A stretch of DNA of 64,000 nt from Sporosarcina sp. Te-1. GTDB lineage: Bacteria; Bacillota; Bacilli; Bacillales_A; Planococcaceae. Position 1 is the stretch's first letter; every line of letters begins with the position of its first letter. The position numbers were made by a program, and so were the translations under genes. Where the stretch lies: assembly GCF_017498505.1 (NCBI RefSeq), contig NZ_CP071798.1, forward strand, positions 2,129,501 to 2,193,500, in the 5' to 3' direction. Under the pieces are notes generated by a model, which saw only the letters and a list, made by a program, of their open reading frames with translations, was not told where the DNA came from and did no database searches. Below, one piece after another: positions 1,568 to 60,855 of the stretch.

Positions 1568-1574
1568 GCTTGGT

Positions 1575-31828: not shown

Positions 31829-33097
31829 TTATGCCTTACGAGGCGTTCCTTCAGCATTTGATACAGTCGCATCGATTTGGATCAACGCATCATGCGGCAA
31901 GTTGGAAACGCCAACGACTCTGCGTGCAGGCGTACCTTGCGGGAAGAATGCTTTGTAAGCTTCGTCTACAGCGTCAAGATCAGCAATGTTCTTAACGTAG
32001 ATATTCACTTTCACCACGTCTTCCAAAGAATGGTTAATGCTTTCTACAATTGCCTTGATATTCTTCAAGCTCTGTTCAGCCTGCTCTTTTACGCCGCCTG
32101 ATACAACTTTGCCAGACTTCGGATCGATTGGCAATTGTGCCGAAAGGTGGTTGTAGTGAGAGAATGCTACAGTTTGTGTAGAAAGCTCATCGATCGGAGC
32201 GTTTTCAGTGTTGTTCGCCCAGATCACGATACCATGTCTGTCTTCAATAGCTTGCGGAGGTGTTCCGTCTCCGTGCGATACGACTGCTTCGATTTGAACA
32301 GAAGCACCCAAAGGCAATGCAGCAGCTTCTACGACTGTACGGGCAGGAACGTAAGCTACCGCTCTTGCGATTGATGAATCCGGGAAGAATCTAGAGTACA
32401 CTTCATTTACAGCTTCCGTATCAGCCAAGTCTGTAAGGAAGATATTGATCTTCACGATATCGTCAAACGGAACGTCGATGCTTTCCAAAATTGCCTTGAT
32501 GTTTTTCAAAGCCTGTGCAGTTTGCTCTTTAACATCGCCCACGACCAAACGGCCAGTCTTTGGATCGATTGGCAATTGAGCTGACAGGTTGTTGTAGTGA
32601 GAGAACGCTACAGTCTGTGTAGAAAGCGGGCTTGTTGGTGCATTCGCCGTGTTGTTTGTAAGTTTAATCAAATCACCTGCTTGTGGCGCGTTTGGAATTG
32701 TCCCTTCTCCGTGGGAAACAAGTGCTTCAATCTGAACAGACGCACCCTTAGGAAGGTCTGCAACTGCAACAGTTGTACGTGCAGGAACATAAGTTGGGAA
32801 GTATGTTTTATACACTTCGTCAACAGCGTCAACGTCCTGGATGTTCTTAACGAATACAGTGATTCTAACAATGTCGCTCATCACATGATCGATGCTTTCA
32901 ACGATTGCTTTGATGTTCTCAAAGCACTGTTCAGCCTGCGCTTTAATACCGCCAGCTACCAGTTCGCCCGTCTGTGGATTGATTGGCAATTGAGCTGAAA
33001 GATTGTTGTAATGTGAGAAAGCTGCAGATTGTGAAGATAAACCGTTACTTGGAGCATTCTCCGTATTTTTTGCTGCTACTGCGTTATAACCGCTCAT
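31829..33097 (-). CDS. Triple RidA (YjgF/YER057c/UK114) domain fusion
   Basis: 422 residues made of three tandem RidA domains (about 1-135, 142-285, 290-422), each starting with the same phrase (AAFSHYNNLSAQLPIN, VAFSHYNNLSAQLPID, VAFSHYNHLSAQLPID) and containing NIKAI(V/L)ESI. Free RidA is about 125 residues and works as a trimer hydrolysing reactive enamine/imine intermediates. The Arg that binds the substrate carboxylate is kept in all (PARTTVAV, PARTVVEA, PARRVVGV); the catalytic-site Glu is kept in domains 1 and 2 (VQIEA) and is Asp in domain 3 (IQIDA). One chain may form a complete pseudo-trimer. Domain 2 has a short insertion (SSIARAVAY). ATG follows GGGGAATAGG. Confidence 0.9.
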   Translation of the reverse strand: MSGYNAVAAKNTENAPSNGLSSQSAAFSHYNNLSAQLPINPQTGELVAGGIKAQAEQCFENIKAIVESIDHVMSDIVRITVFVKNIQDVDAVDEVYKTYFPTYVPARTTVAVADLPKGASVQIEALVSHGEGTIPNAPQAGDLIKLTNNTANAPTSPLSTQTVAFSHYNNLSAQLPIDPKTGRLVVGDVKEQTAQALKNIKAILESIDVPFDDIVKINIFLTDLADTEAVNEVYSRFFPDSSIARAVAYVPARTVVEAAALPLGASVQIEAVVSHGDGTPPQAIEDRHGIVIWANNTENAPIDELSTQTVAFSHYNHLSAQLPIDPKSGKVVSGGVKEQAEQSLKNIKAIVESINHSLEDVVKVNIYVKNIADLDAVDEAYKAFFPQGTPARRVVGVSNLPHDALIQIDATVSNAEGTPRKA

Positions 33098-37216: not shown

Positions 37217-38164
37217 ATGCGAAGTAAAGTGGACAAAACGATCTGGACAGGGCGGACGGATCATGAATTCAATAGAGCGAGTTTCCGGTACCACCAAATC
37301 ATCGAACTCGAGGAGTCTACGCAAGCAGACACGGCATGCGCTCTCATCGGTTTTGTATGTGAAGAAGGAGTGCGGCGGAACAAAGGCCGCTTAGGAGCAG
37401 CTGCAGGACCGGATGCATTACGCGCCGAGCTTGCGAAACTGCCTTGGCGGATGAACGAAGGAAAACGCCTGCTGGATCTCGGGAATGTCATTTGTGATGG
37501 CGAACGCTTGGAAGAAGCACAGCGCAATCTAGGCGATGCAGTAGCAGACGCGTTATCGAACAATTCGATTCCGATTGTTCTCGGCGGCGGACACGAAACG
37601 GCGTATGGCCACTATCTAGGCGTTCGTAAGTTCATCGGCAGCGAAGCGACACTTGGCATCATTAATATCGACGCGCATTTCGACCTGCGTTCTTATGATG
37701 AACAGCCATCTTCTGGAACGATGTTTAAACAAATTTTGGAGCATGATGACAAGAGCGACTATTTAGTGCTCGGCATCCAGCGTTTCGGCAACACACAAGA
37801 ACTTTTTGATACAGCCGATCAATTAGGTGTGACTTATGTGCAAGAAGAGGATATGACGAACAAATCCATGGAAGATACGTTACTTACAATCAAGACTTTC
37901 ATAGCGGACCATGATTATGTCATGCTGACATTATGCACGGACGTGTTAAACGCTGCGTTTGCACCTGGCGTCAGTGCCCCTTCGCCATTCGGATTGGATC
38001 CTTTTATGGTTCGTACAATCATTCGTGCCGTTACCTCTAAAAAGAATGCGCTTTCATTCGACATCTCAGAAGTCAACCCGCTTGTTGACGAAAACAACCG
38101 CACCGTCAAGCTCGGTGCTTATGTAGTAAATGAGGCTATCACGACCTTTTTAGGGAGGAAATAA
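37217..38164 (+). CDS. hutG: Formimidoylglutamase
   Basis: 315 residues of the arginase/ureohydrolase superfamily: GRLGAAAGPDALRAEL, GGGHETAYGHY (metal His), NIDAHFDLR (Asp, His, Asp ligands), and APGVSAPSPFGLDP, a formimidoylglutamase hallmark. It hydrolyses N-formimidoyl-L-glutamate to glutamate and formamide in histidine degradation. The last metal motif, usually SxDxD, reads TLCTDVLN, with Cys at the first Asp position; this may be a subfamily trait. The ribosome site is weak; a GTG four codons downstream is the alternative. Four bases ahead of gltS. Confidence 0.88.
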   Translation: MRSKVDKTIWTGRTDHEFNRASFRYHQIIELEESTQADTACALIGFVCEEGVRRNKGRLGAAAGPDALRAELAKLPWRMNEGKRLLDLGNVICDGERLEEAQRNLGDAVADALSNNSIPIVLGGGHETAYGHYLGVRKFIGSEATLGIINIDAHFDLRSYDEQPSSGTMFKQILEHDDKSDYLVLGIQRFGNTQELFDTADQLGVTYVQEEDMTNKSMEDTLLTIKTFIADHDYVMLTLCTDVLNAAFAPGVSAPSPFGLDPFMVRTIIRAVTSKKNALSFDISEVNPLVDENNRTVKLGAYVVNEAITTFLGRK

Positions 38165-38167
38165 TAT

Positions 38168-39361
38168 ATGACAATTGAATTAAATCAAGTAACAACCATC
38201 TTCTTAGCGATTGCCTTACTCGTATTAGGCCGCTTACTGGTCAATAAAGTCGGCGTGCTGCAGAAGTTCTGCATACCGGCTCCCGTTGTCGGGGGTCTGC
38301 TCTTTGCCATTCTCGCAACCGTTTTCAAAGCGGCAGGGCTCGTTACTTTTTCATTAGATACGTCACTGCAAAGTCTTTTCATGCTGACGTTCTTCACGAC
38401 AGTCGGACTCGGTGCGAGCTTCAAACTCGTCAAGCTGGGCGGGAAGCTGCTCATCATTTACTGGCTCGCATGCGGCTTTTTGGCACTCATGCAAAACGTG
38501 ATTGGTGTGTCCATGGCTTCTCTCTTTAACATTCACCCACTCATCGGGATGATGGCCGGTGCCGTCTCCATGGAAGGTGGACATGGCGCAGCCACCGCGT
38601 TTGGCCAAACAGTAGAAGACCTTGGTATCGATTCCGCTCTTTCTATCGGTGTAGCTGCCGCAACATTCGGGCTTGTTGCAGGCGGACTCGTCGGCGGTCC
38701 TGTCGTGAAATTTCTTATCTCTAAATACAATTTAAAACCGACAGAAACAGAAGACGTCGAGGGAGAATTCTCCGTTGAAAAAAATGAAGCTGAAATCCAA
38801 ACGAATACGTTCTTTACACAAATCCTCCTCATCACGTTCTGTATGGCTCTCGGTACGTATTTAGGAGAACTCTTCTCTTCCGCTACCGGATTTGTCCTTC
38901 CGGGTTATGTCGGTGCGATGTTTGTAGCCGTCATCGTGCGGAATATCGTCGATAAGATCAATCCAAAGGCCATTCATATGAAGAGCATCGGCTTGATTGG
39001 TGATATCACACTTGGCGTCTTCCTTTCCATGGCACTTATGAGCATCAAGCTTTGGGAAGTTGCTGGGCTCGCTCTACCACTGCTCGTCATCGTCTTTGTA
39101 CAAGTCGTCTTTATTGTCTTGTTTGGCATCTTTGTTTTATTCCGCCTGCTTGGCAAAAATTACGACGCCGCTGTCATGGTGGCCGGCTTTACGGGACACG
39201 GGCTTGGCGCAACACCGAACGCCATGGCCAATATGGCAGCTGTCACGGAACGGTTTGGACCATCGCGTAAAGCATATCTTGTTGTTCCAATCGTTGGCGC
39301 GTTTCTCATTGACGTATTCGCGATGCCGATTATCATTACGACCATTAATCTGTTCCAATAA
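38168..39361 (+). CDS. gltS: Sodium/glutamate symporter
   Basis: 397 residues, starting 4 bases after hutG with AGGGAGGAAA upstream. About ten to twelve transmembrane helices; the family motifs IPAPVVGGLLFAIL near the N-terminus, MEGGHGAATAFGQ mid-protein and MVAGFTGHGLGATPNAMANM in the second half form the two inverted reentrant loops of GltS. Imports (or exports) glutamate with sodium. The pairing with hutG fits glutamate as the shared product. Confidence 0.93.
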   Translation: MTIELNQVTTIFLAIALLVLGRLLVNKVGVLQKFCIPAPVVGGLLFAILATVFKAAGLVTFSLDTSLQSLFMLTFFTTVGLGASFKLVKLGGKLLIIYWLACGFLALMQNVIGVSMASLFNIHPLIGMMAGAVSMEGGHGAATAFGQTVEDLGIDSALSIGVAAATFGLVAGGLVGGPVVKFLISKYNLKPTETEDVEGEFSVEKNEAEIQTNTFFTQILLITFCMALGTYLGELFSSATGFVLPGYVGAMFVAVIVRNIVDKINPKAIHMKSIGLIGDITLGVFLSMALMSIKLWEVAGLALPLLVIVFVQVVFIVLFGIFVLFRLLGKNYDAAVMVAGFTGHGLGATPNAMANMAAVTERFGPSRKAYLVVPIVGAFLIDVFAMPIIITTINLFQ

Positions 39362-40608: not shown

Positions 40609-40669
40609 TTACTCTTTAGAGTAATTAGTTATTGCTTTCAAATGCAAAATAATTTACTATATAGAGTAA
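40609..40669 (+). promoter_or_regulatory. Two operator palindromes in front of the HTH-F1beta gene
   Basis: TTACTCTTTAGAGTAA (40609-40624) and TTACTATATAGAGTAA (40654-40669) share 14 of 16 positions, each an inverted repeat of TTACT/AGTAA, 45 bp start to start. The second abuts the ribosome site of the gene at 40685, so binding there would block transcription; the natural ligand is the protein's own HTH. Confidence 0.7.
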
Positions 40670-40684
40670 TAGGGGGTGAGTAAA

Positions 40685-41734
40685 TTGGAAAATAAAAATT
40701 TGAGATTGAATGCTTCATTGCTAAGAAGACGTGTACCTAATTTGACGAGTGCCGCAAAAGCTGTCGGTTTGCGGCCGGCAACGGTATCAAACTTATGCAC
40801 AGGGAAAATTTCTGTTGGCAAATCGGAAGTGCGTACGCTTGTGGCATTGGCGGATTTGGCGGGCTGCAGTTTGGATGAATTGATTATCAGAGGGGAGAAA
40901 ATCGAAATGATCGAAACGAAAATCAAGACGTTGGATCTGTTTGCACCACTTGCAAAAGGCGGTACCGTCGGGTTGGTTGCCCGAAGAAACATGGGGCAGC
41001 TTGTCGTGCTGAGTGAAATCTTCTATCGGTTGAAATCAGAAGGATTTGCGACGATCCTGCTTATGCCACAAGGGGATTTCCCTGAGCTGGCAGATGTTTT
41101 GGAAAACGTGGAGTGGGTAACTCATTCGATCGAGGAAACGTACGAGAAAATCGCAGCTTTAGGAACGGAAAAAGAAATCGCGTTTGCCGCGGATCGAAGC
41201 CATGTCGTGTCGGGAGACATCTATGACATGCAGGAGCGGCTGCAGCAAATTGGCGTTGATTCCGTTACTACGTTCTTATTGGATTTGACAGGCAATGCTG
41301 TGGACGAAGACCTGCCGTATGGACCACTCGAAACCTTATGGCAGTTCGATGCCGATCTTTCCGCGCGCCATTGCTACCCGGCTGTTGATCCGATCAGCTC
41401 CACATCATCCGTGCTGGAAGGCGCCCATTTGGATCAAAACCATTTTTTCATTCAACAAAGAGCGCAGAAACTGCTTCGTCGCTACCGGGAATTGCGTTCC
41501 TTAGTGAATGTGAATGGATTGGAAAAACTGCCGGCGTCAGAGCGATCCACCTTTAAACGGGGAGAGCGCTTGGAAGCCTATTTGACCCAGCCATTTTACG
41601 TAGCAGAAGAATTCACGAAGAAACAAGGGGAGTCCGTCTCGTTACAGGAAACATTGAAAGACGTGCAAGCCATTTTAGACGGATCATTCGATCAGGATGA
41701 CATCGAGCAGCTCCGTTTCATCGGGAAGATATAA
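40685..41734 (+). CDS. HTH domain fused to a degenerate F1-ATPase beta-subunit-like body
   Basis: 349 residues from the TTG at 40685, six bases after AGGGGGTG; a GTG at 40676 lies inside that site. Residues 6-68 are an XRE/Cro-type HTH (LTSAAKAVGLRPATVSNLCTG, recognition helix about 30-40). Residues 72-349 align with the ATP synthase beta subunit: EKIEMIETKIKTLDLFAPLAK resembles beta's ILETGIKVVDLLAPYIKGG, and YPAVDPISSTSSVL resembles YPAVDPLVSTSRAL. The QKLLRRYREL, LTQPFYVAEEFT and VSLQETLKDVQAILDG stretches complete the C-terminal helical domain. The HTH replaces beta's N-terminal barrel. The P-loop GGAGVGKT reads ARRNMGQL, so Lys and Thr are lost, and the catalytic Glu region and DELSEED loop are absent. 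Not an ATPase; probably a regulator that senses a ligand or partner (inference). Confidence 0.88.
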   Translation: MENKNLRLNASLLRRRVPNLTSAAKAVGLRPATVSNLCTGKISVGKSEVRTLVALADLAGCSLDELIIRGEKIEMIETKIKTLDLFAPLAKGGTVGLVARRNMGQLVVLSEIFYRLKSEGFATILLMPQGDFPELADVLENVEWVTHSIEETYEKIAALGTEKEIAFAADRSHVVSGDIYDMQERLQQIGVDSVTTFLLDLTGNAVDEDLPYGPLETLWQFDADLSARHCYPAVDPISSTSSVLEGAHLDQNHFFIQQRAQKLLRRYRELRSLVNVNGLEKLPASERSTFKRGERLEAYLTQPFYVAEEFTKKQGESVSLQETLKDVQAILDGSFDQDDIEQLRFIGKI

Positions 41735-41741
41735 ATAAACG

Positions 41742-41784
41742 ATGCCAGGCACCTGCATCATTAGGTGTCTGGCATTCTGTTTTG
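41742..41784 (+). terminator. Terminator of the HTH-F1beta gene
   Basis: ATGCCAGGCACCT (41742-41754) / AGGTGTCTGGCAT (41763-41775), then TCTGTTTTG. One G-T pair. Confidence 0.85.
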
Positions 41785-48873: not shown

Positions 48874-49149
48874 ATTTCTTTATTATATCTTAACGCTTTC
48901 TATTTAATCGTGTTTTCGGTCGGTTGCAGTGGTGGAATAGCCTTGTTACTTTATAAAGTAATCAATAACATAAAAACAGTTTCAAGAACGCTTAGTTATA
49001 TATTGGGGGACGTAGTATCTTTAATTCTAAGCTACTTAATGGCTTTGCTGCTGTTTAGTGGAGTTTGGACCTTTACTTTACCTACTGTTGTTCTGGCGTT
49101 AGTGTTTTATGTGATAGCCCTTGTTTTGTCAAATAAGTATGCTAGATAA
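48874..49149 (+). CDS. Small membrane protein, possibly starting at ATT
   Basis: The only good ribosome site, GGGAGGT at 48861-48867, is six bases before an in-frame ATT at 48874 (product about 91 residues); the first ordinary codon in frame is a GTG at 48910 without a site (79 residues). Three hydrophobic segments: LLYLNAFYLIVFSVGCSGGIALLL, YILGDVVSLILSYLMALLLF and TLPTVVLALVFYVIALVLS. ATT starts are rare (infC is the classic case). Function unknown. Confidence 0.55.
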   Translation: MSLLYLNAFYLIVFSVGCSGGIALLLYKVINNIKTVSRTLSYILGDVVSLILSYLMALLLFSGVWTFTLPTVVLALVFYVIALVLSNKYAR

Positions 49150-49303: not shown

Positions 49304-50095
49304 TTACTTACAATACATTGATACGCTGCCCAACCCATCAAATTCTGCAATAACGGAGTCACCCGGTCCAAACGCAATAGCTTCAGACATGGCTCCGCTT
49401 AGTACGATCTCACCATTTTTCAATCCTTTTCCTTGTAAGGCCAATTGCTTCACTGCCCAAGCGATCGCTTCAGCGGGATGTCCCAATACAGCTGCACTTG
49501 AACCTGTTTGCGCCACTTCCCCATTTTTGGACATCACCATTCCAATGTTCGCCAAATCAATAGCATGGGGTGAAACCCATTTGCTTCCTACTATGAATTT
49601 CGAGGATGAACAATTATCAGCTACAACGTCCACTAATGTAAAACGGAAATCTTTGAAACGGCTATCGATAACTTCGAGAGCTGGAGCTACATATTTTGTT
49701 GCCTTTAGAACGTCTTCTACAGTTATGTTTTCCCCTTGTAAGTCTTCAGCCAATAAAAATGCAATCTCAGGCTCTACTTTTGGATGAATCAATCCCGAAA
49801 GCTGGATTGGTTCCCATTCCAGTGCTAGCATATCATTATGCAAATATCCGTAAATTGCTTCATTGACACCCATCATTTCCTGTTTTGCTTTACTCGTTAA
49901 ACCTAATTTCACTCCAACTTGCCGCGTGCCAATTTCCTCGCTTCTACGCGCAAGCAGCCCTACTTGAATCTCGTAAGCTTCTTCAATCGTCAGATCAGGG
50001 AATTCATCTGTTACTTTAACAACTTCCCTTGCGTCCTTTTCAGCTTCAAACAAATAATCAATGATTCCTTTTTCCTTCGTTGTCAGTTGAGTCAT
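49304..50095 (-). CDS. dmpH: 4-oxalocrotonate decarboxylase (2-oxo-3-hexenedioate decarboxylase), DmpH-like
   Basis: 263 residues of the hydratase/decarboxylase family. Motifs specific for the decarboxylase branch: GVKLGLTSKAKQEMMGV, LIHPKVEPEIAF, VIDSRFKDFRFTLVDVVADNCSSSKF, GLGSVSM. It decarboxylates 4-oxalocrotonate to 2-oxopent-4-enoate with a divalent metal and acts with the hydratase encoded at 52074. Last gene of the 3-hydroxyanthranilate catabolic unit; order hydratase-dehydrogenase-aldolase-decarboxylase equals that of dmpEFGH. Confidence 0.85.
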   Translation of the reverse strand: MTQLTTKEKGIIDYLFEAEKDAREVVKVTDEFPDLTIEEAYEIQVGLLARRSEEIGTRQVGVKLGLTSKAKQEMMGVNEAIYGYLHNDMLALEWEPIQLSGLIHPKVEPEIAFLLAEDLQGENITVEDVLKATKYVAPALEVIDSRFKDFRFTLVDVVADNCSSSKFIVGSKWVSPHAIDLANIGMVMSKNGEVAQTGSSAAVLGHPAEAIAWAVKQLALQGKGLKNGEIVLSGAMSEAIAFGPGDSVIAEFDGLGSVSMYCK

Positions 50096-50098
50096 CGA

Positions 50099-51121
50099 TC
50101 ACACCCTCATTTCATCTTTTTTGGCCAATTCGGCGGCCACGTCCAGAATCATATCTTCCTGTCCACCTATAGCTTTCCTTTTTCCTAACTCGACTAAAAT
50201 GTCCCGTGGATCTAACCCGAATCTTCTTCCTGCACGCTCTGCATGAAGTAAAAAGCTGGAATAGACTCCTGCATACCCCATCACAAGACTACCTTTCCGG
50301 ATTTCCTGCGAACCAGGAATGATCGGCCCTACAATGTTTTCCGCGACATCCATCATTTTGTATAAATCAATTCCAACATCAATACCCATCCGATCCAGGA
50401 CGGCTACTAGAACTTCGGTTTGCGTATTGCCAGCTCCTGCACCTAAACACCGCACACTTCCATCAATCCGTGTCGCTCCCTCTTCAATTGCGGCAATCGT
50501 ATTAGCTACGGCAACCGACAAGTTATTATGCGCATGGAAACCGACTTCAATATCCAATGACTGACGTAACGCTTTTATCTTTTCACGTACATCATTTGGC
50601 AGCATCGCACCTGCGGAATCTGTTACATAGACGGCTTCCGCCCCGTAACTTTCCATCAATTTAGCTTGTTCCACCAATTTCTCCACCGAAACAGAATGTG
50701 ACATCATTAAAAAGCCCAATGCCTCCATTCCCAGTTCACGGGCCTTCGCGATATGTTGTGCAGAGACATCAGCTTCCGTTGAATGGGTGGCTACCCGGAC
50801 CAACTTTGCCCCTAATCCATGTGCCTGTTTCAACTCATTGATTGTACCGATTCCCGGTATTAGCAGAACTGCCACTTTTGATTTTTTGCATTCATCGACA
50901 GCGGCTTCAATCAAAGTCATTTCATCGACCAATGATTTTCCGTATTGGATCGTGGAACCGCCCAATCCATCCCCGTGACTCACTTCAATATAATGCATGC
51001 CCGCGTCATCCAATCCACGGACTATATTTCGGACTTGATCCTCCGTGAATTGGTGCGCAACGGCATGACTTCCGTCACGCAAGCAAACTTCCGTCAGTTT
51101 TATCAGTTTATTTTCCACCAT
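50099..51121 (-). CDS. dmpG: 4-hydroxy-2-oxovalerate aldolase
   Basis: 340 residues. HMGL-like TIM barrel: LTEVCLRDGSHAVAHQFTEDQV (catalytic Arg/Asp), YVTDSAGAMLP, VGFHAHNNLSVAVAN (metal His pair), and the C-terminal dehydrogenase-communication domain. Cleaves 4-hydroxy-2-oxovalerate to pyruvate and acetaldehyde; acetaldehyde is channelled to the dehydrogenase encoded just upstream at 51143. Starts 22 bases after that gene. Confidence 0.93.
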   Translation of the reverse strand: MVENKLIKLTEVCLRDGSHAVAHQFTEDQVRNIVRGLDDAGMHYIEVSHGDGLGGSTIQYGKSLVDEMTLIEAAVDECKKSKVAVLLIPGIGTINELKQAHGLGAKLVRVATHSTEADVSAQHIAKARELGMEALGFLMMSHSVSVEKLVEQAKLMESYGAEAVYVTDSAGAMLPNDVREKIKALRQSLDIEVGFHAHNNLSVAVANTIAAIEEGATRIDGSVRCLGAGAGNTQTEVLVAVLDRMGIDVGIDLYKMMDVAENIVGPIIPGSQEIRKGSLVMGYAGVYSSFLLHAERAGRRFGLDPRDILVELGKRKAIGGQEDMILDVAAELAKKDEMRV

Positions 51122-51142
51122 TGTTCATTCCTCCCTCTGGGT

Positions 51143-52036
51143 CTATAATGTAGCTCTTTCTGCATTGCGGGAAAGCAGCGGCTGTGCGAAATTCTCCGCC
51201 GCCCGGACAGCAGCGGCTGTCATGATATCCAGATTCCCTGCATAACTAGGAAAGTAATCGCCTGCTCCTTCCACTTCGATGAAGACAGTTACCCGATTCC
51301 CGTCGAATAGCGGATCCTGTTTCAATCGATATCCAGGTACGTAGCTGTTCACTTTATTTACCATATCGACGATGGCGGTATGGATCATTTCTTCATTCAT
51401 GTTCTTCACTTCACAATAGATCGTATCGCGCATCAGGATAGGAGGTTCCGCAGGGTTCATGATAATCAACGCTTTTCCTCGATCGGCACCACCAACTTCT
51501 TCGATTCCACGCCGTGTCGTATGTGTGAACTCATCGATATTCGCTCTAGTGCCAGGTCCTGCGCTACGGCTTGAAATGGTCGCAACGATTTCACCGTATG
51601 AAACATCAGCCACTTGATTAATTGCATGGACGATTGGAATGGTCGCCTGCCCGCCACAAGTGATCATATTAACATTCTCCAAAATAGCGTCTCCGGAATT
51701 AAAACTGACAGCCGGGCAGAAGAAAGGCCCCACAGCAGCAGGCGTTAAGTCAATCGCCAATTTCCCAAGCTCTTTCAATACTTTTGCGTGATGTACATGT
51801 GCCTTTGCAGACGTGGCATCAAAAACGATATCCGCAATATCCGGGTGTCCGATCAATCCATCAATCCCATTTGAAAATACCTGATAACCCTTCTCCTTGG
51901 CACGTTTCAACCCGGCTGAATCCTCGTCAATTCCAATGACTGCTGTAAGCTCAATTAATTCGCTTCGTTCAAGTTTATACATCAAATCAGTACCGATATT
52001 TCCTGAACCGATGATAGCAGCTTTTATTTTCCCCAT
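51143..52036 (-). CDS. dmpF: Acetaldehyde dehydrogenase (acylating)
   Basis: 297 residues from the ATG at 52036 (GGAAGGGG upstream; the 52057 start is not supported). NAD-binding [17 protein letters not shown], catalytic Cys in [42 protein letters not shown]. Oxidises acetaldehyde to acetyl-CoA in complex with the aldolase. Confidence 0.93.
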
Positions 52037-52073
52037 GGCTATACCCCTTCCTTTCATTTATAACTGGAATTCC

Positions 52074-52847
52074 TTATTCATAACGGACCTTTACGGAACC
52101 CAACTTGCCGAACCTCGCCTCAATTTCATCTCCTGCTGTGACTGGGACAGCTCCAGACAAAGCACCGGGAAGGATCAGCTCGCCTTTTTTCAGCCCGATC
52201 CCGAATTCATGCAATTTATTGGCCAGCCAGGCTACTGCGTGTGCAGGATGACCAAGTGCAGCAGATCCGGCACCTGTTGCAAGTAATTCGCCATTTTTCA
52301 AAAGAACCATGCTGTTCGTACGTAAATCGATGGCATCAAGGTCTAATTTTGAATCTCCTATAACAACCCTTGCAGATGACCCGTTATCCGCCACGGTATC
52401 CACCAGCTTGATTTTCCAGTCATTCACACGGCTATCAATAATCTCAAGTGTCGGTATGACATACTCGGTAGCCATCATGACATCGATAAATGTTACATTG
52501 GGACCATCCAAATCCTTCGCCAGCATAAAGCCAATTTCCGCTTCCACTTTAGGAGAAAGCATAGTATCCACTTTCACTGTAGCGTTATTGGCCAACTTCA
52601 TATCATCAAACAGATGTCCGTAATCCGGCTCATCCACATTAAGCATTTTTTGCATGGCAACACTTGTTAAACCGACCTTCTTACCAATCACCCGTTTGCC
52701 GTTAGCAAGCTTTAATTTCACCATCTCCAGTTGGATTTCATAAGCATCCGCTACGGTCAGACTTGGATTCCGTTCTGTCAATGGGGCAACGCCTACACAA
52801 GACGCTTCCGCTTCTAACAATTCTTCTGCGTATTGAACATAGTTCAT
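52074..52847 (-). CDS. dmpE: 2-oxopent-4-enoate hydratase, DmpE-like
   Basis: 257 residues, paralogous to the decarboxylase at 49304 but with hydratase-branch wording: GKKVGLTSVAMQKMLNVDEPDYGHLFDDM, MLSPKVEAEIGF, EIIDSRVNDWKIKLVDTVADNGSSARV. Adds water to 2-oxopent-4-enoate to make 4-hydroxy-2-oxovalerate. About 140 bases separate it from the upstream aldehyde dehydrogenase; no terminator seen there. Confidence 0.85.
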   Translation of the reverse strand: MNYVQYAEELLEAEASCVGVAPLTERNPSLTVADAYEIQLEMVKLKLANGKRVIGKKVGLTSVAMQKMLNVDEPDYGHLFDDMKLANNATVKVDTMLSPKVEAEIGFMLAKDLDGPNVTFIDVMMATEYVIPTLEIIDSRVNDWKIKLVDTVADNGSSARVVIGDSKLDLDAIDLRTNSMVLLKNGELLATGAGSAALGHPAHAVAWLANKLHEFGIGLKKGELILPGALSGAVPVTAGDEIEARFGKLGSVKVRYE

Positions 52848-52990
52848 CGAAACTCGATTCCTCCCTAATTCGTCAATTCTCCTTAAATCAATCGGAAGAT
52901 GTTGCCCTCCTGTCTAAGTTACATCCTGCCAATGCAAGCGGTAATCAAAAACGACAAAAGGTCGGCAGAACGCCCCCCTTCGTCGTATAC

Positions 52991-54460
52991 CTATTTTTTC
53001 ATCGTGATGGTTTTCGCTTCCGTATAAAAATCAAAGCTGTGCCGTCCGCCTTCTCGGCCGATACCGCTTGCTTTGGCACCACCAAAAGGCGTCCGCAAGT
53101 CACGGACATACCAACAATTAACCCACAGCAACCCCGAGTGAATTTGTGATGTGACCCGTTGGCCGCGTCGCAGATCATTCGTCCAGACAACGCCAGCTAA
53201 TCCATAAATCGAATCATTAGCAATTCTGATGGCATCCTCTTCTGTTTTGAAAGGAATGATCACAGGCACTGGGCCAAAAATTTCTTCTTGAGCGATTCGC
53301 ATTTTATTATCCACATCATAGAGAACTGTAGGTTCATAAAAATTGCCGTCTGGGAGATGAGGAACCCTTTTTCCTCCATATGCGAGTTTCGCACCTTCAG
53401 CCAGCCCGATTTGAACGTATTCATCAACAGACTTCAAATGTCCTTTAGACACAAGTGCACCCATATCCGTCTCTTCGTCCATCGGATCACCGACTTTTAT
53501 CTGTTTCACAGCTGCAACGAAGCGGTCGAGAAATTGATCATAAATACTTTCTTGAACGAGTATTCGTGAACCTGCCAGGCAGATTTCACCTTGGTTGCGG
53601 AAAATGGCTTCAATCGAACCGGCCACTGCTTCATCCAATTCGGCATCTTCAAATACGATATTCGCTGATTTTCCGCCCAGTTCCAGCGATACGGGAATCA
53701 AATTTTCTGCAGCATTGCGCATGACCGTCTTCCCGGTATTCGATTCACCGACAAAGGAAATCCGACGTACGGCGGGATGTGTACACATGACAGTCCCAAC
53801 AGTACTTCCAGGCCCTGTCAGGATGTTAAGCACACCCGGAGGAAGACCTGCTTCGTTTGCAATTTCTCCAAGCATCACCGCGCTAAGTGGCGTATAGGAA
53901 GCAGGTTTAACAACAACCGTGTTCCCTGCCGCCAACGCAGCCGATGCTTTCCAGGTCATCTGCATGAATGGCAAATTCCATGGGATAATCAAACTCGTAA
54001 CTCCCGCTGGCGCATACTGGACATAGGACATATAGTTGCTCATGTCATAATGTTCATGCACCATGTACTTCGCCATTTCAGCAAAGAAGCGAAAATTGGA
54101 GGCTGCTCTCGGAATATCGAATCCACGGCTTTCTTTAATCGGCTTACCGACATCCATCGATTCGACGTAGGCAAGCTCATCGACTTTCATCATGATCAAA
54201 TCTGCCATCCGGCAAAGAATTTTGGAACGTTCCTCAACAGGCATCCTGCTCCAAACGCCGCTTTCAAACGTACGCTGAGCAGTTACAATTGCGATTCGCG
54301 TATCGGCTTCCCCGCCATTTGCAACCGTCGCCAACTTCTTATTCGTTGCCGGATTGATGGTATTAAACGTTTCACCGGACAGTGCTTCCAGATATTCTCC
54401 ACCGATGAAAAGCTTTGCGTCCCGGATGACTCTTTGTTCAGCCGTTATCTCTTTGGTCAC
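52991..54460 (-). CDS. nbaE: 2-aminomuconate-6-semialdehyde dehydrogenase
   Basis: 489 residues, GTG start at 54460 after AGGAGGAAGG. ALDH superfamily with LELGGKSANIVFEDAELDEA (general base Glu), NQGEICLAGSR (nucleophile Cys) and EIFGPVPVIIPF. The neighbouring ACMS decarboxylase and deaminase identify the substrate as 2-aminomuconate semialdehyde, oxidised with NAD to 2-aminomuconate. Confidence 0.9.
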   Translation of the reverse strand: MTKEITAEQRVIRDAKLFIGGEYLEALSGETFNTINPATNKKLATVANGGEADTRIAIVTAQRTFESGVWSRMPVEERSKILCRMADLIMMKVDELAYVESMDVGKPIKESRGFDIPRAASNFRFFAEMAKYMVHEHYDMSNYMSYVQYAPAGVTSLIIPWNLPFMQMTWKASAALAAGNTVVVKPASYTPLSAVMLGEIANEAGLPPGVLNILTGPGSTVGTVMCTHPAVRRISFVGESNTGKTVMRNAAENLIPVSLELGGKSANIVFEDAELDEAVAGSIEAIFRNQGEICLAGSRILVQESIYDQFLDRFVAAVKQIKVGDPMDEETDMGALVSKGHLKSVDEYVQIGLAEGAKLAYGGKRVPHLPDGNFYEPTVLYDVDNKMRIAQEEIFGPVPVIIPFKTEEDAIRIANDSIYGLAGVVWTNDLRRGQRVTSQIHSGLLWVNCWYVRDLRTPFGGAKASGIGREGGRHSFDFYTEAKTITMKK

Positions 54461-54471
54461 TGTCCTTCCTC

Positions 54472-54921
54472 CTACTCCTCAATTTCAACGATAACTTCAA
54501 TTTCAATTGCCGTATTATTGGGCAACTGCGCCATTCCTACTGCTGACCGGCCATGTTTTCCTTTTTCCCCGAACACCTTGCCGATTAAATCGGAAGCACC
54601 GTTCATCACTTTTGGCTGATCCGTGAAATCTTCCGTGCTATTCACCATTCCAAGCACTTTGACGAACTGCTTCACACGACTCAGTTCGCCGACTTCGTGT
54701 TTAATGACGCTCAGAAGATTTAGCATCGATTGCTGAGCTGCCAAATAGCCTTCTTCCAATGAGAGTTCCCTGCCTAGCTTACCGTGGTACTCATCTACTC
54801 CTTGGCCGGCGGTGAACAACAAATTCCCTGTTCTCACACAACGCACATAATCACCTAGCATAGGGCGCAGGGGCGGTAGTTCCAGACCTAACTCCGCCAG
54901 TTTCTCTTCTGGTGTTTTCAT
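54472..54921 (-). CDS. nbaF: RidA-family 2-aminomuconate deaminase
   Basis: 149 residues; ATG overlaps the previous stop (ATGA). RidA fold: LPPLRPMLGDYVRCVRTGNLLFTAGQG, AQQSMLNLLSVIKHEVGELSRVKQFVKVLGMVNS, then GRSAVGMAQLPNNTAIEIEVIVEI. In Pseudomonas NbaF/AmnD, 2-aminomuconate deaminase belongs to this family and forms 4-oxalocrotonate and ammonia. Its place in the pathway operon supports the same role here. Confidence 0.88.
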   Translation of the reverse strand: MKTPEEKLAELGLELPPLRPMLGDYVRCVRTGNLLFTAGQGVDEYHGKLGRELSLEEGYLAAQQSMLNLLSVIKHEVGELSRVKQFVKVLGMVNSTEDFTDQPKVMNGASDLIGKVFGEKGKHGRSAVGMAQLPNNTAIEIEVIVEIEE

Positions 54922-55928
54922 TTTTTCATCTCATCCTTTACTTTTACATTCAGGAATGCCAGCGCATTCCCCCCCAATATTGCGTTCTTTTGTTCATCCG
55001 TTAGATTGGTTGTATCATCAACCACTTTACCTGGCGGGATTTCACGTAAAAGAAAGGGATAATCGGAACCCATTACAATTTTTTCATGACCAAAACGGTC
55101 AATTAGGAAATTCAGAGTAAGCGGGTCATAATTTAATGAATCAAAATAGAAATTCTTTGCATAATGGCTGGGTGGTTTACTCGTTTGCCGTAAATGCGGC
55201 CAGACATTCCAACCTTGGTCCAACCTCGGCAGGATATAGGGAAAAGAGCCGCCGCCATGCGCAAAACAAATTTTCAGATTCGGGAATTTCTCCATTACGC
55301 CCCCGTTGACGAGACTGGCAGCCGCGAGTGCCGTTTCGCTAGGCATCCCTACTGTGTACATCAAGTTATGCCGCGGCATCCGTTCTCTGCCAAGTGTTTC
55401 CCATGGATGAATGAACAAAGGAACTTCCCATTTCTCAGCCATTTCGAAAAATAGGGTGAAGGAGGGATCATCCAAGTTCACACCATTGATATTTGTACCG
55501 ATTTCAATCCCTTTCAAACCAAGCTCTTTTATACACCGTTCCATTTCCCGGATAGAAATTTCAACGTTTTGCAACGGGACGGTGCCTAGTCCGATGAAAC
55601 GGTCAGGATATTGTTTCACAGTATTTGCAATGAAATCATTTTGGATGATTGCCATCTGTTCCGCGGCTTCCGGTTCAGCCCAATAGGAGAAAGTCACGGG
55701 AATGGGAGATAGAACTTGAATATCTACACCTTCCGCATCCATGTCTTGTATTCTTTTTTCTGGGCTCCAGACTTGGTCTGTCACTTCACGGAACACTTTT
55801 CCTTCCACCATGATGTTCGCACCGCATGAACATGTCTTTTCCAACGTCGGCCAGCGTCCGCCGCCGAACTTCTCAACGAAATCCGGAATGTCTTCAGGAA
55901 TGATATGCGTATGGAAATCTACCCTCAT
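54918..55928 (-). CDS. nbaD: 2-amino-3-carboxymuconate-6-semialdehyde decarboxylase (ACMSD)
   Basis: 336 residues from the ATG at 55928, which overlaps the dioxygenase stop (AAATGA); the TTG at 55934 is less likely. Amidohydrolase-type barrel with zinc ligands visible: VDFHTHIIPEDIP (HxH), LFIHPWE (His) and MGSDYPF (Asp), plus FAHGGGSFPY. Decarboxylates 2-amino-3-carboxymuconate semialdehyde, diverting it from quinolinate to catabolism. Confidence 0.93.
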   Translation of the reverse strand: MRVDFHTHIIPEDIPDFVEKFGGGRWPTLEKTCSCGANIMVEGKVFREVTDQVWSPEKRIQDMDAEGVDIQVLSPIPVTFSYWAEPEAAEQMAIIQNDFIANTVKQYPDRFIGLGTVPLQNVEISIREMERCIKELGLKGIEIGTNINGVNLDDPSFTLFFEMAEKWEVPLFIHPWETLGRERMPRHNLMYTVGMPSETALAAASLVNGGVMEKFPNLKICFAHGGGSFPYILPRLDQGWNVWPHLRQTSKPPSHYAKNFYFDSLNYDPLTLNFLIDRFGHEKIVMGSDYPFLLREIPPGKVVDDTTNLTDEQKNAILGGNALAFLNVKVKDEMKK

Positions 55929-56470
55929 TTCCAAAGACCCACTTCTTCAGACATGACATAACCACACTTCTTGCATGTCCGGAGTTCTCCACTTCCGTTG
56001 AACTCTTCAATAGCCCCTTTAACTTGCGTCTCGATATCTGTCAATTGCACGCGCTTGCGATGCATTTCCTCATCACACCCCTCACAGAACCAAACAAAAT
56101 CTTCCAGTTCACCCATATCTCGTTTACGTTCAATGACCAAGCCGAATGTATCGGCAATACGGTGTGGAGAATGTGGAATATTTGCGGGCAGCATGAAAAC
56201 TTCACCTTCTTTGACTGTCACAACTTCGCGTTTACCGTTGTTAATGACTTCAACGAAGCAATCCCCTTTGATCTGGTAAAAGAACTCATCTGAAGGGTCA
56301 ACATGGAAATCTCGGCGGCGATTAGGACCACCCAAAATCATGCAAATGAATTCCGAGTCTTCCCAGAGGACCTTGTTATTGACCGGCGGCTTAAGCTCAT
56401 CCTTATGTTCTTCAATCCATTTCATCAAGTTGAATGCTTGCAATTTCATCATTGTCGATTTGGTCATCAT
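55925..56470 (-). CDS. nbaC: 3-hydroxyanthranilate 3,4-dioxygenase
   Basis: 181 residues, ATG after GGTGGAGG. Cupin with iron ligands His 56 and Glu 62 (DFHVDPSDEFFYQIKGD) and His 100 (NIPHSPHR). The C-terminal rubredoxin-like metal site of bacterial enzymes is present: CEGCDEE near residue 129 and CKKCGYV near 164. Opens the ring of 3-hydroxyanthranilate to 2-amino-3-carboxymuconate semialdehyde. First gene of the second transcription unit; a cre box lies just upstream. Confidence 0.95.
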   Translation of the reverse strand: MMTKSTMMKLQAFNLMKWIEEHKDELKPPVNNKVLWEDSEFICMILGGPNRRRDFHVDPSDEFFYQIKGDCFVEVINNGKREVVTVKEGEVFMLPANIPHSPHRIADTFGLVIERKRDMGELEDFVWFCEGCDEEMHRKRVQLTDIETQVKGAIEEFNGSGELRTCKKCGYVMSEEVGLWK

Positions 56471-56501
56471 TGAAATCCTCCACCTTTTTAGTTTTACTTA
56501 C

Positions 56502-56517
56502 TAGAAAGCGTTTACAT
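56502..56517 (-). promoter_or_regulatory. Catabolite-responsive element (CcpA cre)
   Basis: Minus strand ATGTAAACGCTTTCTA matches WTGNNARCGNWWWCAW at 15 of 16 positions, 32 bases before the nbaC start, downstream of a TTGAAA. Predicts repression on preferred sugars. Confidence 0.65.
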
Positions 56518-56540
56518 TTTTCAAGAGAAAGGACCCTGCT

Positions 56541-56589
56541 AACCAGTACGAACATCTGAAGAGTCATTCTTCACAAACAAGTACTGGTT
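56541..56589. promoter_or_regulatory. Inverted repeat upstream of nbaC, candidate operator
   Basis: AACCAGTAC (56541-56549) and GTACTGGTT (56581-56589) are perfect inverted copies, with GAAGA/TCTTC inside. Lies in the upstream region of nbaC, so could bind the IclR regulator or fold as a leader hairpin. Confidence 0.5.
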
Positions 56590-56692
56590 GTGCTCTTACT
56601 ATAAAGCAATACATTTTGACTTCTCCGCTACTTTTTTCACATTATGAAATACCATGAAATAATTCTTAAAATTAATTACAAACGATTAAAGA

Positions 56693-56905
56693 TCAGTCAC
56701 CTGGATAAAAACATACGTTGCATTTCAGGCACTCCTTTCCGCATCCCGTCTTGTTTTCCAGCTTACTGCGGGCAGCTTGGAGTTGCTTTTCATGTTCCAG
56801 AGGAACTGCTAATCTCTTTAGTTTTGTTTCTCTCCCTTGAAAAATGGCCCCAACACTCTTTTCCGGTCGACGGTTTTCATGGGTATTCAGGTTCGCGGTT
56901 TCGAT
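56693..56905 (-). CDS. Possible Cys-rich small protein without an ordinary start codon
   Basis: A minus-strand frame of about 70 codons ends LENKTGCGKECLKCNVCFYPGD (stop at 56693). The only ribosome site, AGAGGTG, is eight bases before an ATC at 56905; no ATG, GTG or TTG lies in frame upstream. The four closely spaced cysteines resemble a metal-binding knuckle. Either translated from a rare AUC, or a decayed gene. Fills the 580-bp gap between iclR and nbaC. Confidence 0.35.
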   Translation of the reverse strand: METANLNTHENRRPEKSVGAIFQGRETKLKRLAVPLEHEKQLQAARSKLENKTGCGKECLKCNVCFYPGD

Positions 56906-57013
56906 AGTACTTTCACCTCTTTTCGTCTTGAGTTATTCACTTAATATAGCAAGTCGGACCTTATCGTTAGTAACGGAACTTTCACATTACGAAATGACAC
57001 TAAATAAAACATT

Positions 57014-57054
57014 AAAAAATACAGCTATGGAGTTTGTTTCGACTCCACAGCTGT
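57014..57054 (-). terminator. Terminator of the kynU-permease-iclR unit
   Basis: Minus strand ACAGCTGTGGAGT / ACTCCATAGCTGT followed by ATTTTTTAA. Confidence 0.85.
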
Positions 57055-57070
57055 GTGCTTTGTGCTTTAT

Positions 57071-57817
57071 TCAAACTTCGATATATCCTAATTCTTTCGA
57101 GATCAACTGTGCCGTGTTCTTCACGCTCTGGATCATCATCTTCCGGTCACTGGCCAACATATAGGAAATCGGTGCAACTAAATTGACAGCTGCAATGATC
57201 TCCTCCGAATAGGAAAAGATCGGTGCCGCAATCCCATACATACCATCCGAATTTTCATTATTGCTGATCGAGTAGCCTTTGATACGTATCTCTTCAAGTT
57301 CCTGTTTTAACCGGCTTATATCGGTGATAGTATTCGGGGCCTCGCCCAACAGGCCACGCTCAAGAGTTTCTTTAAGATAAACTGCATTATGAGAAAGTAA
57401 TACTTTCCCCGAACTGGTCGCGTATGCCGGCTTTCTGGAACCGATATATGTTTGAATGGGCGTGGACTCCTGGGAAGACACCTTTAGTACAAATACGACA
57501 GTCCCTTTATCAAACATAGCAATATGGACCGTTCCCCTGAATCTATGAATTAATTCCTTGACCAGGGGCATGGCTTTGTCATAAACATCTTGTTGGAACA
57601 TGACATGGTTATTCCATTCAAGCAACCTCCACCCCAGGCGATATTTTTTCCTGTCATCCTTCATGAGCACACCCTCGGCACAGAGGGTGCTGACGAGATG
57701 ATGCGCCGTACTGATATTCATATCCAGCCTTTCAGCTATCTCTCCAATGCCGAGCGCAGGGTCTTCATTGGAAAAACAGCTAATGATCTGACAAGCTTTC
57801 CTTACAGAACCTATCAC
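57071..57817 (-). CDS. IclR-family transcriptional regulator
   Basis: 248 residues from the GTG at 57817 (GGGGGG six bases upstream); the frame extends to 57895 without a site. N-terminal HTH: SVRKACQIISCFSNEDPALGIGEIAERLDMNISTAHHLVSTLCAEGVL; C-terminal effector domain with YIGSRKPAYATSSGKVLLSH and GIAAPIFSYSEEIIAAVNL. Encoded between the permease and the dioxygenase operon; expected to sense a pathway intermediate and control nbaC onward (inference). Confidence 0.9.
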   Translation of the reverse strand: MIGSVRKACQIISCFSNEDPALGIGEIAERLDMNISTAHHLVSTLCAEGVLMKDDRKKYRLGWRLLEWNNHVMFQQDVYDKAMPLVKELIHRFRGTVHIAMFDKGTVVFVLKVSSQESTPIQTYIGSRKPAYATSSGKVLLSHNAVYLKETLERGLLGEAPNTITDISRLKQELEEIRIKGYSISNNENSDGMYGIAAPIFSYSEEIIAAVNLVAPISYMLASDRKMMIQSVKNTAQLISKELGYIEV

Positions 57818-57910
57818 CAAAATCCCCCCAATGTTCAATTCATCGGCTCCCCTGTGCAAAAAAAGCATCGTCGGCTGGCTGCGCCAACTCGACAATGCCT
57901 TGTACCGCTT

Positions 57911-59383
57911 TTACCCCTTCACTTCTTCCAGGGGTTCATCTGAAGCTACCACTATAGTATCTTCTGGACCGTTCATTCCAGGCTCATCTGGAGTTACCCC
58001 TTTTGAACCCTGTTTCTTTTTCCAGATGAGGTAGCAAACCGTGATGAAAATCAGCCACGGGAAACCTAGAGTTAAGGTGGCGCGGAAATCAGGCGAGAAC
58101 CATGTTGACAATACAACCGAAGCGAGTAAAACAGCCCCTGTAATTGTCAAGTAAGGATAACCAATCATTTTAACCGGAAGCTTTCGACCATTGTTCGCAT
58201 TCCACTTTTTCCGGAAAAACAGATGTGTGATAAAGATCATGAACCAAGCAAACATTGCACCGAAACTCGACAGTGAAATCATTGTTACGAATGCAGTCTC
58301 AGGTTTAACGACTGTAAAAATTGTTGCAAATACAATACCGATCACAGATGCATATAGGGCAATGGAAGGAACCTTCCTTTTGTTTAACTTTCCGAGAACT
58401 TTTGGTGCATAGCCACCACGAGAAAGTGAAAACATCATTCGAGTGGAAATATAAAGCTGACTATTCATGGCGGAAAGTGCCGCAATTAGAACGACAAAGT
58501 TCATGATGCCCGCCGCACCAGGAATATTGACAATCTCCATTACTTTAACAAATGGACTTTTATCGGCTCCAGCCGAAGACCAAGGAACAATCATTAACAT
58601 TAGTGACAATGTAAGGAGGTAGAAAAGAACAAGACGTAAAACCGCTGATTTCAGAGCTATGGGAACAGCTTTTTCAGGATCTTTCGCTTCGCCGGCACTG
58701 ACTGCTATCATTTCAATACTCAGGTAACTGAAGAGAGAGATGAACACAGCAATCCACATACCCCAAAGTCCATTAGGAAAAAATCCGCCGTCGTTTGTGT
58801 AATTTTGTGGGCCGATTGCTGATGTACTATCTGCGCCTACAACTACATACACAGCCAAAATGATAAATCCTGTGATGGCAATGACTTTGATAAGGGAGAA
58901 CCAGTATTCTACGACGCCGAACATTTTAACAGTCGTAGCATTCACGTACATAAGAATTGCAGCAAACAGTAAGATCCATACAATAGCCGGAACTGTAGGG
59001 AACCAATATTTCATGTAAACGGCAACAGCTGTAACTTCTGTCCCGATGGCACACACGAGACTGAACCAATATGAATAACGGACGGAGAAACCTGCCCAAG
59101 GATTAATATACCGTTCTGCATACGCACCGAATGATCCTGTAACCGGATGCGCCACAGTCATTTCGGCCAGGCACCCCATCAACAGTAGCGCAATCAATGC
59201 CCCGATCGCATAACTGACAATGACACTTGGCCCCGCACTCCCGATCGCCAAACCACTGCCTAGAAATAGACCCGTACCAATTGCTCCCCCAATTGCAATC
59301 ATAGTGAGTTGCCCAGTCTTGAGACTGCGATTTAACCCTTTCTCCCTCTCGATAATGTCCTGAAAATCGTTTGCTTTTTTCAT
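57911..59383 (-). CDS. Amino acid permease (APC superfamily, AAT family)
   Basis: 490 residues from the ATG at 59383 (GAGAAGGA upstream). Twelve transmembrane helices; LNRSLKTGQLTMIAIGGAIGTGLFLGSG at the first helix and SAMNSQLYISTRMMFSLSRGGYAP are AAT-family signatures. It begins 30 bases after kynU, so it likely imports tryptophan, kynurenine or another aromatic amino acid for the pathway. Confidence 0.9.
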   Translation of the reverse strand: MKKANDFQDIIEREKGLNRSLKTGQLTMIAIGGAIGTGLFLGSGLAIGSAGPSVIVSYAIGALIALLLMGCLAEMTVAHPVTGSFGAYAERYINPWAGFSVRYSYWFSLVCAIGTEVTAVAVYMKYWFPTVPAIVWILLFAAILMYVNATTVKMFGVVEYWFSLIKVIAITGFIILAVYVVVGADSTSAIGPQNYTNDGGFFPNGLWGMWIAVFISLFSYLSIEMIAVSAGEAKDPEKAVPIALKSAVLRLVLFYLLTLSLMLMIVPWSSAGADKSPFVKVMEIVNIPGAAGIMNFVVLIAALSAMNSQLYISTRMMFSLSRGGYAPKVLGKLNKRKVPSIALYASVIGIVFATIFTVVKPETAFVTMISLSSFGAMFAWFMIFITHLFFRKKWNANNGRKLPVKMIGYPYLTITGAVLLASVVLSTWFSPDFRATLTLGFPWLIFITVCYLIWKKKQGSKGVTPDEPGMNGPEDTIVVASDEPLEEVKG

Positions 59384-59412
59384 AACGTCCTTCTCCCCCA
59401 ATTAGCTTTAAT

Positions 59413-60699: not shown

Positions 60700-60742
60700 A
60701 GAAACCATCCCCTTACTTTTAAACTTTTCTGAATTCACAAAC

Positions 60743-60771: not shown

Positions 60772-60855
60772 TATTATTTTAAAAAAATCAAACGTGAAGT
60801 GTGCAGATAGTTTTTCACGTCTTTCCTCCAACCTATGAACCTTCCCTATGTTTCT

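What the first reader, a model, noticed from the sequence alone, without database searches (positions are those of the whole stretch)
40685..41734. A helix-turn-helix domain fused to a dead ATP synthase beta-subunit body
Residues 6-68 are an XRE-type HTH; residues 72-349 follow the F1 beta subunit from the segment before the P-loop to the C-terminal helical domain. The match is unmistakable at IETKIKTLDLFAPLAKGG, YPAVDPISSTSSVL, LLRRYREL, LTQPFYVAEEFT and VSLQETL. Beta's N-terminal barrel is replaced by the HTH. The P-loop reads ARRNMGQL instead of GGAGVGKT, so nucleotide hydrolysis is lost. I know of no described transcription factor built this way. It could sense nucleotides, F1 subunits or proton-motive-force state, or use the beta fold purely as a scaffold.
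Basis: partly seen in the sequence, partly recalled or inferred. Interest (0 to 1): 0.93.

Follow-up and report, generated by a model that had tools for sequence, protein, structure and literature searches.

The report
Gene regulator built from ATP synthase
In Bacillus relatives, a protein that some databases list as an ATP synthase part is a predicted DNA-binding domain joined to an ATP synthase beta-subunit body whose key ATP-gripping residue has been replaced; it likely acts as a switch that controls its own gene, because mirror-image DNA sites lie just in front of that gene in 75 of 80 relatives examined.

The parts
40685..41734 (+). HTH-F1beta fusion gene, 349 aa, TTG start (alternative GTG 40676, 352 aa)
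   Evidence: the 120 relatives listed have 347-366 aa
40685..40894 (+). predicted XRE/Cro-like HTH domain, residues 1-70; recognition stretch LRPATVSNLCTGK
   Evidence: Pfam HTH_26 0.0011; five helices in 10-66; L29, R30, A32-C38, G40, K41 identical in 120 of 120 relatives
40895..41731 (+). F1-beta body, residues 71-349 (RecA-like domain shortened, C-terminal helical domain kept; N-terminal barrel absent)
40970..41005 (+). altered P-loop, residues 96-107 (GLVARRNMGQLV); Lys->Gln105, Thr->Leu106
   Evidence: Q in 98 of 98 proteins read
41192..41194 (+). D170, aligned by eye with the beta Walker B Asp (FIDNIFRF); tentative
   Evidence: D in 119 of 120; the automatic alignments place this stretch otherwise and with low confidence
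41375..41377 (+). Y231, aligned with the beta adenine-stacking Tyr of YPAVDP (role of that Tyr recalled)
   Evidence: F 64, Y 53, W 3 of 120; alignment
41588..41614 (+). QPFYVAEEF, residues 302-310, aligned with the beta adenine-pocket Phe/Ala/Phe (roles recalled)
   Evidence: F304 120 of 120, A307 115 of 120, F or Y310 118 of 120
40609..40624 (.). operator 1, TTACTCTTTAGAGTAA (10/10)
40632..40647 (.). operator 2, TTGCTTTCAAATGCAA (8/10); TTGCTT is a possible -35
   Evidence: third letter G in 66 of 68 aligned loci; -35 role inferred
40654..40669 (.). operator 3, TTACTATATAGAGTAA (10/10); TACTAT 40655-40660, 17 bp after TTGCTT, is a possible -10
   Evidence: the simple promoter scan did not flag it, so inferred
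40671..40679 (+). ribosome-binding site AGGGGGTGA
   Evidence: sequence
41741..41776 (+). terminator-like hairpin of 15 pairs after the gene, which would make a one-gene unit
   Evidence: 2 terminator-like hits found, 1.8 expected by chance in this stretch

Best explanation
This gene encodes a predicted helix-turn-helix domain joined to the P-loop and C-terminal domains of an F1-ATP synthase beta subunit, without beta's N-terminal barrel and without its P-loop lysine, and the protein likely works as a one-component transcription factor that represses its own promoter through an array of TTACNNTNNANNGTAA palindromes, with the beta-derived body predicted to be its sensor. Shown by sequence: the fusion, the loss of the P-loop Lys, the palindrome array before the gene, its being the best-scoring array in each genome with an uninterrupted gene (at the gene or its formamidase operon), and purifying selection. 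Inferred: that the HTH binds these palindromes, probably as dimers side by side about two helical turns apart; that binding blocks the polymerase, since one site carries the likely -35 and the next the likely -10; that a small adenine-bearing compound sits in the retained adenine side of the old nucleotide site and, by closing the body as nucleotide closes beta, loosens the DNA grip; and that the gene has spread between families. In some lineages a formamidase/acetamidase-family gene is placed in the same operon, so the signal there may have to do with nitrogen or amide supply; where that gene is missing, as here, only self-control is evident and any further targets would be weaker single sites.
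For: Fusion and fold. Family-wide: 819 relatives at E<=1e-3 of 7,997 scored, the 120 listed 69-100% identical over 97-100% of the length; 268 relatives in a two-pattern scan of 84,980 species genomes, the best 80 fetched. Operators: sites of >=9/10 occur 176 times in 9,522 bp upstream (75 of 80 loci) against 82 times in 1,306,244 bp elsewhere in the same loci; 10/10 sites 104 against 11. Of 1,269 other ORF starts in these loci 20 have such a site. Spacing 21-23 bp in 123 of 146 neighbouring pairs. Of the five loci without a near site, three (L051, L058, L064) have one or two in front of an fmdA gene upstream and two (L078, L080) have two further upstream. Genome-wide: with a model of the array (32 of 68 loci, the window among them) the best-scoring hit in 18 of 18 genomes with an uninterrupted gene is at the gene (17) or at the head of its fmdA operon (G720). 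Selection: whole-gene dN/dS 0.03-0.09 in 16 of 17 pairs, one saturated; HTH 0-0.07 and body 0.02-0.09 where computable. FmdA link.
Against: No binding, repression or ligand data. HTH score under Pfam's gathering cut-off in this protein. No second target is convincing: isolated exact sites in the own genome number 3, against 15 for the reversed control pattern, which is odd for a regulator and would fit a protein whose main job lies elsewhere. The array search scored only 150 candidates per genome, two carriers score weakly (G412 2.9e-3, G158 0.056), and one genome without the gene (G650, 6.6e-4) scores better than those two; the other 11 without it have 0.02-0.65. FmdA adjacency is a minority: 5 of 80 named loci plus one remnant, and 2 of the 19 carriers in the class sample. 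Any-type FmdA is not clearly tied to the gene (13 of 18 uninterrupted carriers, 5 of 12 non-carriers). Position 310 of the adenine pocket is Val or Leu in some distant members. The model is of middling confidence (pLDDT 74.4) and poor (<50) over most of 205-248, which holds part of the pocket, and at 100-102 in the P-loop. The conserved -35/-10 fits the consensus only loosely and the scan missed it.
Confidence: 0.68

Rival explanations
1. The beta body is a pure scaffold for oligomerisation along the operator array and senses nothing; the protein is a constant-level autorepressor.
For: P-loop Lys lost in all 98 read; no clear target beyond itself in most genomes; two to four sites in phase in 73 of 80 loci.
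Against: The altered nucleotide site is among the most conserved parts of the body: residues 72-118 have 81% mean identity to the window against 55% for 119-175; pocket aromatics kept; FmdA operons suggest a signal.
Confidence: 0.17
2. The body senses a protein partner, for example a free alpha or gamma subunit of F1 or an assembly factor, and reports F1 assembly.
For: C-terminal domain keeps the beta pattern (LLRRYREL, QPFYVAEEFT).
Against: The barrel that holds the alpha/beta ring (recalled) is absent; the gamma-contacting DELSEED (recalled) is replaced by variable residues; no F1 gene among the window neighbours scanned and no array hit near atpD in the own genome.
Confidence: 0.07
3. The palindromes belong to another regulator and the HTH is vestigial or binds elsewhere.
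For: No direct proof that this HTH binds them; one genome without the gene (G650) has an array-like hit of 6.6e-4 before another XRE gene.
Against: Array and gene occur together in 18 of 18 uninterrupted carriers, and 11 of 12 relatives without the gene have no hit under 0.02; the recognition stretch is nearly identical in 120 relatives; in three Paenibacillus loci and G720 the array is at the head of the longer operon.
Confidence: 0.06
4. It is chiefly the specific regulator of a formamidase/hydrolase module, and solo genes are left-overs on the way to loss.
For: Seven whole fmdA neighbours in two gene orders, one remnant (L039); fmdA of >=70% identity to G720's in 2 of 398 class genomes, both beside this gene; G470, a deep branch in a midpoint-rooted tree, has it; broken copies exist.
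Against: Most loci have no fmdA, yet the gene is under strong selection and keeps the array there.
Confidence: 0.15

Closest known systems
F1-ATP synthase beta subunit (AtpD, TIGR01039)
   Same: RecA-like core and C-terminal helical domain, 18-26% identity over 259-276 residues in the 50 rows shown
   Different: No N-terminal barrel; P-loop GK[ST] replaced by GQ and mostly Leu; HTH in front; stands alone; own atpD elsewhere in the genome at 3.618 Mb
XRE/Cro-type one-component repressors
   Same: N-terminal HTH, palindromic operators over their own promoter (general traits recalled)
   Different: No effector domain of the F1-beta kind that I can recall or that searches showed
Regulators with an enzyme-derived sensor (ROK repressors, MocR/GabR with aminotransferase fold, B. 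subtilis PurR with phosphoribosyltransferase fold; all recalled, one search gave no useful source)
   Same: DNA-binding domain plus a former enzyme body used as sensor
   Different: Body comes from the catalytic subunit of a rotary ATPase
Mycoplasma F1-like ATPases, Types 2 and 3 (PMC3369863, abstract and outline read), and G1-ATPase of gliding (9io5)
   Same: Extra beta-like genes outside the atp operon
   Different: Those are ATPases in seven-gene clusters; this is a gene without F1-like neighbours, with HTH and altered P-loop

Membership tests
F1-ATP synthase beta subunit (AtpD) | Whole-protein score over the curated equivalog cut-off | tested here: not met
   121.1 of 462.85 bits
F1-ATP synthase beta subunit (AtpD) | RecA-like and C-terminal domains of the beta fold | tested here: met
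   (predicted model and sequence profile)
F1-ATP synthase beta subunit (AtpD) | N-terminal beta barrel | tested here: not met
   no barrel family among Pfam hits up to E 10; the aligned part starts at residue 70-72, on beta residue 120-130 of the bacterial chains
F1-ATP synthase beta subunit (AtpD) | P-loop GxxxxGK[ST] | tested here: not met
   Q in place of K in 98 of 98 read and in 120 of 120 aligned
F1-ATP synthase beta subunit (AtpD) | Gene in an atp operon | tested here: not met
   window neighbours are GltS, DUF418, an unassigned protein, a DUF4357/GIY-YIG-like protein and Dus
XRE/Cro-type HTH regulators | HTH domain over the family cut-off | tested here: inconclusive
   HTH_26 19.6 of 22 bits; two of the 120 relatives listed, P0041 and P0075, carry PF13443
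XRE/Cro-type HTH regulators | Palindromic operators over own promoter | tested here: met
   75 of 80 loci; 17 of 18 genomes at the gene, 1 at its operon head; by sequence only
XRE/Cro-type HTH regulators | Sequence-specific DNA binding | not testable with these tools
   needs EMSA or footprint
Mycoplasma F1-like ATPase clusters | alpha-, gamma- and epsilon-like genes alongside | tested here: not met
   none among the Pfam-scanned neighbours in the window

The most novel reading that the evidence does not exclude
A transcription factor whose sensor is a disarmed catalytic subunit of the ATP synthase: the nucleotide site lost its phosphate-gripping lysine but kept its adenine pocket and now reads an adenine compound, so that the open/closed motion that once turned the rotor now sets the DNA grip of an operator-array repressor; an ancestral formamidase module shows its link to nitrogen supply.
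Probability: 0.33. Interest if true: 0.88.

Novelty: new variant of a known kind. Interest (0 to 1): 0.77.

Why it matters
One-component regulators with enzyme-derived sensors are known (recalled), but a rotary ATPase subunit recruited as one appears undescribed. It gives a testable case of how a motor part becomes a switch. It also has a practical side: some public sources name these proteins 'ATP synthase subunit B' or 'F-type H+-transporting ATPase subunit beta', so surveys that count atpD genes or build atpD trees could be misled.

Tried and rejected
Conserved neighbours: the commonest neighbour cluster reaches 22 of 81 loci and looks like a response regulator at many offsets; the other clusters of the 30 printed reach 19 or fewer; none looked specific, and fmdA was found only by reading the loci that lack the near array. 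Regulon by exact pattern in the own genome: five places, two in the own promoter, reversed control 15; the other three (after a purine-permease-like gene, near the start of a PucG-like aminotransferase gene, both names by eye, and at window 48946) are isolated and taken as chance. Twenty weaker sites in 13 genomes were read: about half lie inside genes, the rest before unrelated genes; sites shared by two genomes (L142/L143, L150/L151, L156/L157) fall in or at conserved genes and resemble the array poorly. FmdA genes elsewhere in these genomes have no convincing site; three single 9/10 hits only. Plasmids (E limit 1e-30): one record, 57% identical, 897 kb Paenibacillus. Phages (E limit 1e-5): 19 records of 24-34% identity, ordinary F1-beta-like, perhaps bacterial DNA in those records. 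Families of G720 and G470: 2 of 39 and 2 of 3 carry the gene. A tree against AtpD was not built: at about 25% identity the branch would be too long to place. The second structure job was not used. Papers; searches gave no paper at all, being strict; of the rest I read the abstract and outline of PMC3369863 and passages of PMC10781810, and saw the others only as listings.

Full report

A family, not an accident. A protein search gave 819 relatives at E<=1e-3 among 7,997 scored candidates; the 120 listed, which are the closest, are 69-100% identical over 97-100% of the length, and the other 699 were not seen. A scan of 84,980 species genomes with two peptide patterns found 268 relatives, of which the best 80 were fetched. 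In samples of whole genomes 3 of 398 of the phylum and 19 of 398 of the class (broken copies included) carry it; one same-genus genome besides the own has it and the nine other same-genus genomes listed lack it. Presence is thus patchy. A quick tree of 84 rows puts Caryophanaceae rows in at least two places, Sporosarcina in an 8-row set and Ureibacillus and Bhargavaea in an 11-row set with several other genera, both sets at 100 support; the forks above them have 81-87 and many inner forks are open. This points to transfer between families. Whole-gene dN/dS was 0.03-0.09 in 16 of 17 pairs, one being saturated; several dS exceed 1, so the values are rough. By halves it was 0-0.07 for the HTH and 0.02-0.09 for the body, where it could be computed.

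The altered nucleotide site. Over the 120 closest relatives R100, G104 and Q105 never vary, M103 is 119 of 120 and L106 113 of 120 (Thr in one). The residues aligned with beta's adenine pocket (roles recalled) are largely kept: F/Y/W231 120 of 120, F304 120 of 120, A307 115 of 120, F/Y310 118 of 120; in distant members position 310 can be Val or Leu. The DELSEED motif is gone. The stretch between P-loop and QERL is shortened, and the alignments of beta's Walker B Asp and catalytic Glu and Arg there are of low confidence and differ between programs, so I do not claim the fate of the last two, and the D170 match is by eye. The best reading is a site that was repurposed rather than left to decay; that it binds anything is inference.

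The operator array. Upstream of the gene lie palindromes TTACNNTNNANNGTAA. At >=9 of 10 fixed letters there are 176 in 9,522 bp upstream, in 75 of 80 loci, against 82 in 1,306,244 bp of the rest of the same loci; perfect ones 104 against 11. Of 1,269 other ORF starts 20 have one. Per locus there are 0, 1, 2, 3, 4 sites (>=8/10, 130 bp) in 5, 2, 14, 45, 14 of 80; 123 of 146 spacings are 21-23 bp. The motif was read off these same loci, so the counts describe enrichment and are not an independent test. In the window the sites are at 40609, 40632 and 40654. The middle site has TTG for TTA in 66 of 68 loci and stands 17 bp before TACTAT in the third, so I take these as -35 and -10; the plain promoter scan did not flag them. 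A sequence model of the array built from 32 of the 68 loci, searched in 31 genomes with 150 candidates scored in each, gave its best hit at the gene in 17 and at the head of its fmdA operon in 1 of 18 genomes with an uninterrupted gene; E runs from 4.3e-14 (own, part of the model) to 2.9e-3 (G412) and 0.056 (G158). The nineteenth carrier searched (G695) has lost the 5' part of the gene and shows no array there. Of 12 relatives without the gene 11 had best E of 0.02-0.65; the twelfth, G650, had 6.6e-4 before an unrelated small XRE gene. G721, at a contig edge, was not searched. So self-control is strongly indicated, and no other common target was seen.

The formamidase link. In L051, L058, L064 (Paenibacillus) and in G720 sites stand before a formamidase/acetamidase-family gene (PF03069) upstream of the fusion gene, with an alpha/beta hydrolase between the two in L064 and G720 and a remnant in L051. 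In L027, L028 and G470 the order is array, fusion gene, fmdA; the two genes overlap by eight bases in G470. L039 has a remnant. Seven whole cases in two gene orders make chance unlikely. In the 398-genome class sample fmdA of at least 70% identity to G720's occurs in two genomes (G720 itself and G470), both beside the fusion gene; 30 further genomes have versions of 47-63%, two of them (G395, G637) carriers of the fusion gene. PF03069 of any kind occurs in 13 of 18 uninterrupted carriers and 5 of 12 non-carriers, which says little. The own genome's FmdA is 28% identical to this kind and has no operator. Since G470 branches deep in the midpoint-rooted tree, the link may be old and lost in most lines; that is inference. 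PMC10781810 (passages read) states that formamidase genes answer to formamide, nitrogen, iron or carbon supply in other organisms, with no regulator of this kind in the passages seen.

How it likely works. HTH dimers would sit on neighbouring palindromes about two turns apart and cover -35 and -10, a tight self-repression. The body would act as the sensor; closing around an adenine-bearing ligand, as beta closes on nucleotide (recalled), would change the spacing of the HTH pair. The ligand, the sign of its effect and DNA binding are all untested.

Novelty. Eight paper searches in one open-access library brought no description of such a fusion: five aimed at the fusion, two at the formamidase link and one at enzyme-derived regulators (80). 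Subscription journals are not covered and the terms were few. I file it as a new variant of a known kind: a one-component regulator with an enzyme-derived body, here from a rotary ATPase.

Noticed in passing
49304-61023 (-), with parts at 49304-50095, 55925-56470, 57911-59401 and 59413-61023: Cluster with kynureninase, 3-hydroxyanthranilate dioxygenase, an FAA-hydrolase-family enzyme and an amino acid permease, and an aldehyde-dehydrogenase-like gene by eye: likely tryptophan/kynurenine breakdown by the 3-hydroxyanthranilate route.
   Followed up: partly
37217-39361 (+): Arginase-family gene (possibly a formiminoglutamase, which would make formamide) next to a sodium/glutamate symporter, 1.3 kb before the fusion gene; the link to the formamidase story may be chance.
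   Followed up: partly
31829-33097 (-): 422-aa protein that looks like three RidA-type units in tandem (by eye; not searched).
   Followed up: no
7763-9211 (+): Protein with long acidic repeats (ADTPADEE..., AEKPDAEDS...), perhaps a wall or surface protein (by eye).
   Followed up: no
48946-48961: Lone perfect copy of the operator palindrome (TTACTTTATAAAGTAA) with no clear gene start close by.
   Followed up: partly
L140 2063-2110: In a same-genus genome without the fusion gene (G650), an array-like stretch (E 6.6e-4) directly before a small XRE gene followed by a gene that may be of the ImmA metallopeptidase type (by eye): perhaps a related operator design.
   Followed up: partly
L108 (G662:C23) 1453-1890 (-): Second, broken copy of the fusion gene with an array-like hit still in place (9.9e-5), cut by a stop and a transposase-like fragment.
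   Followed up: partly
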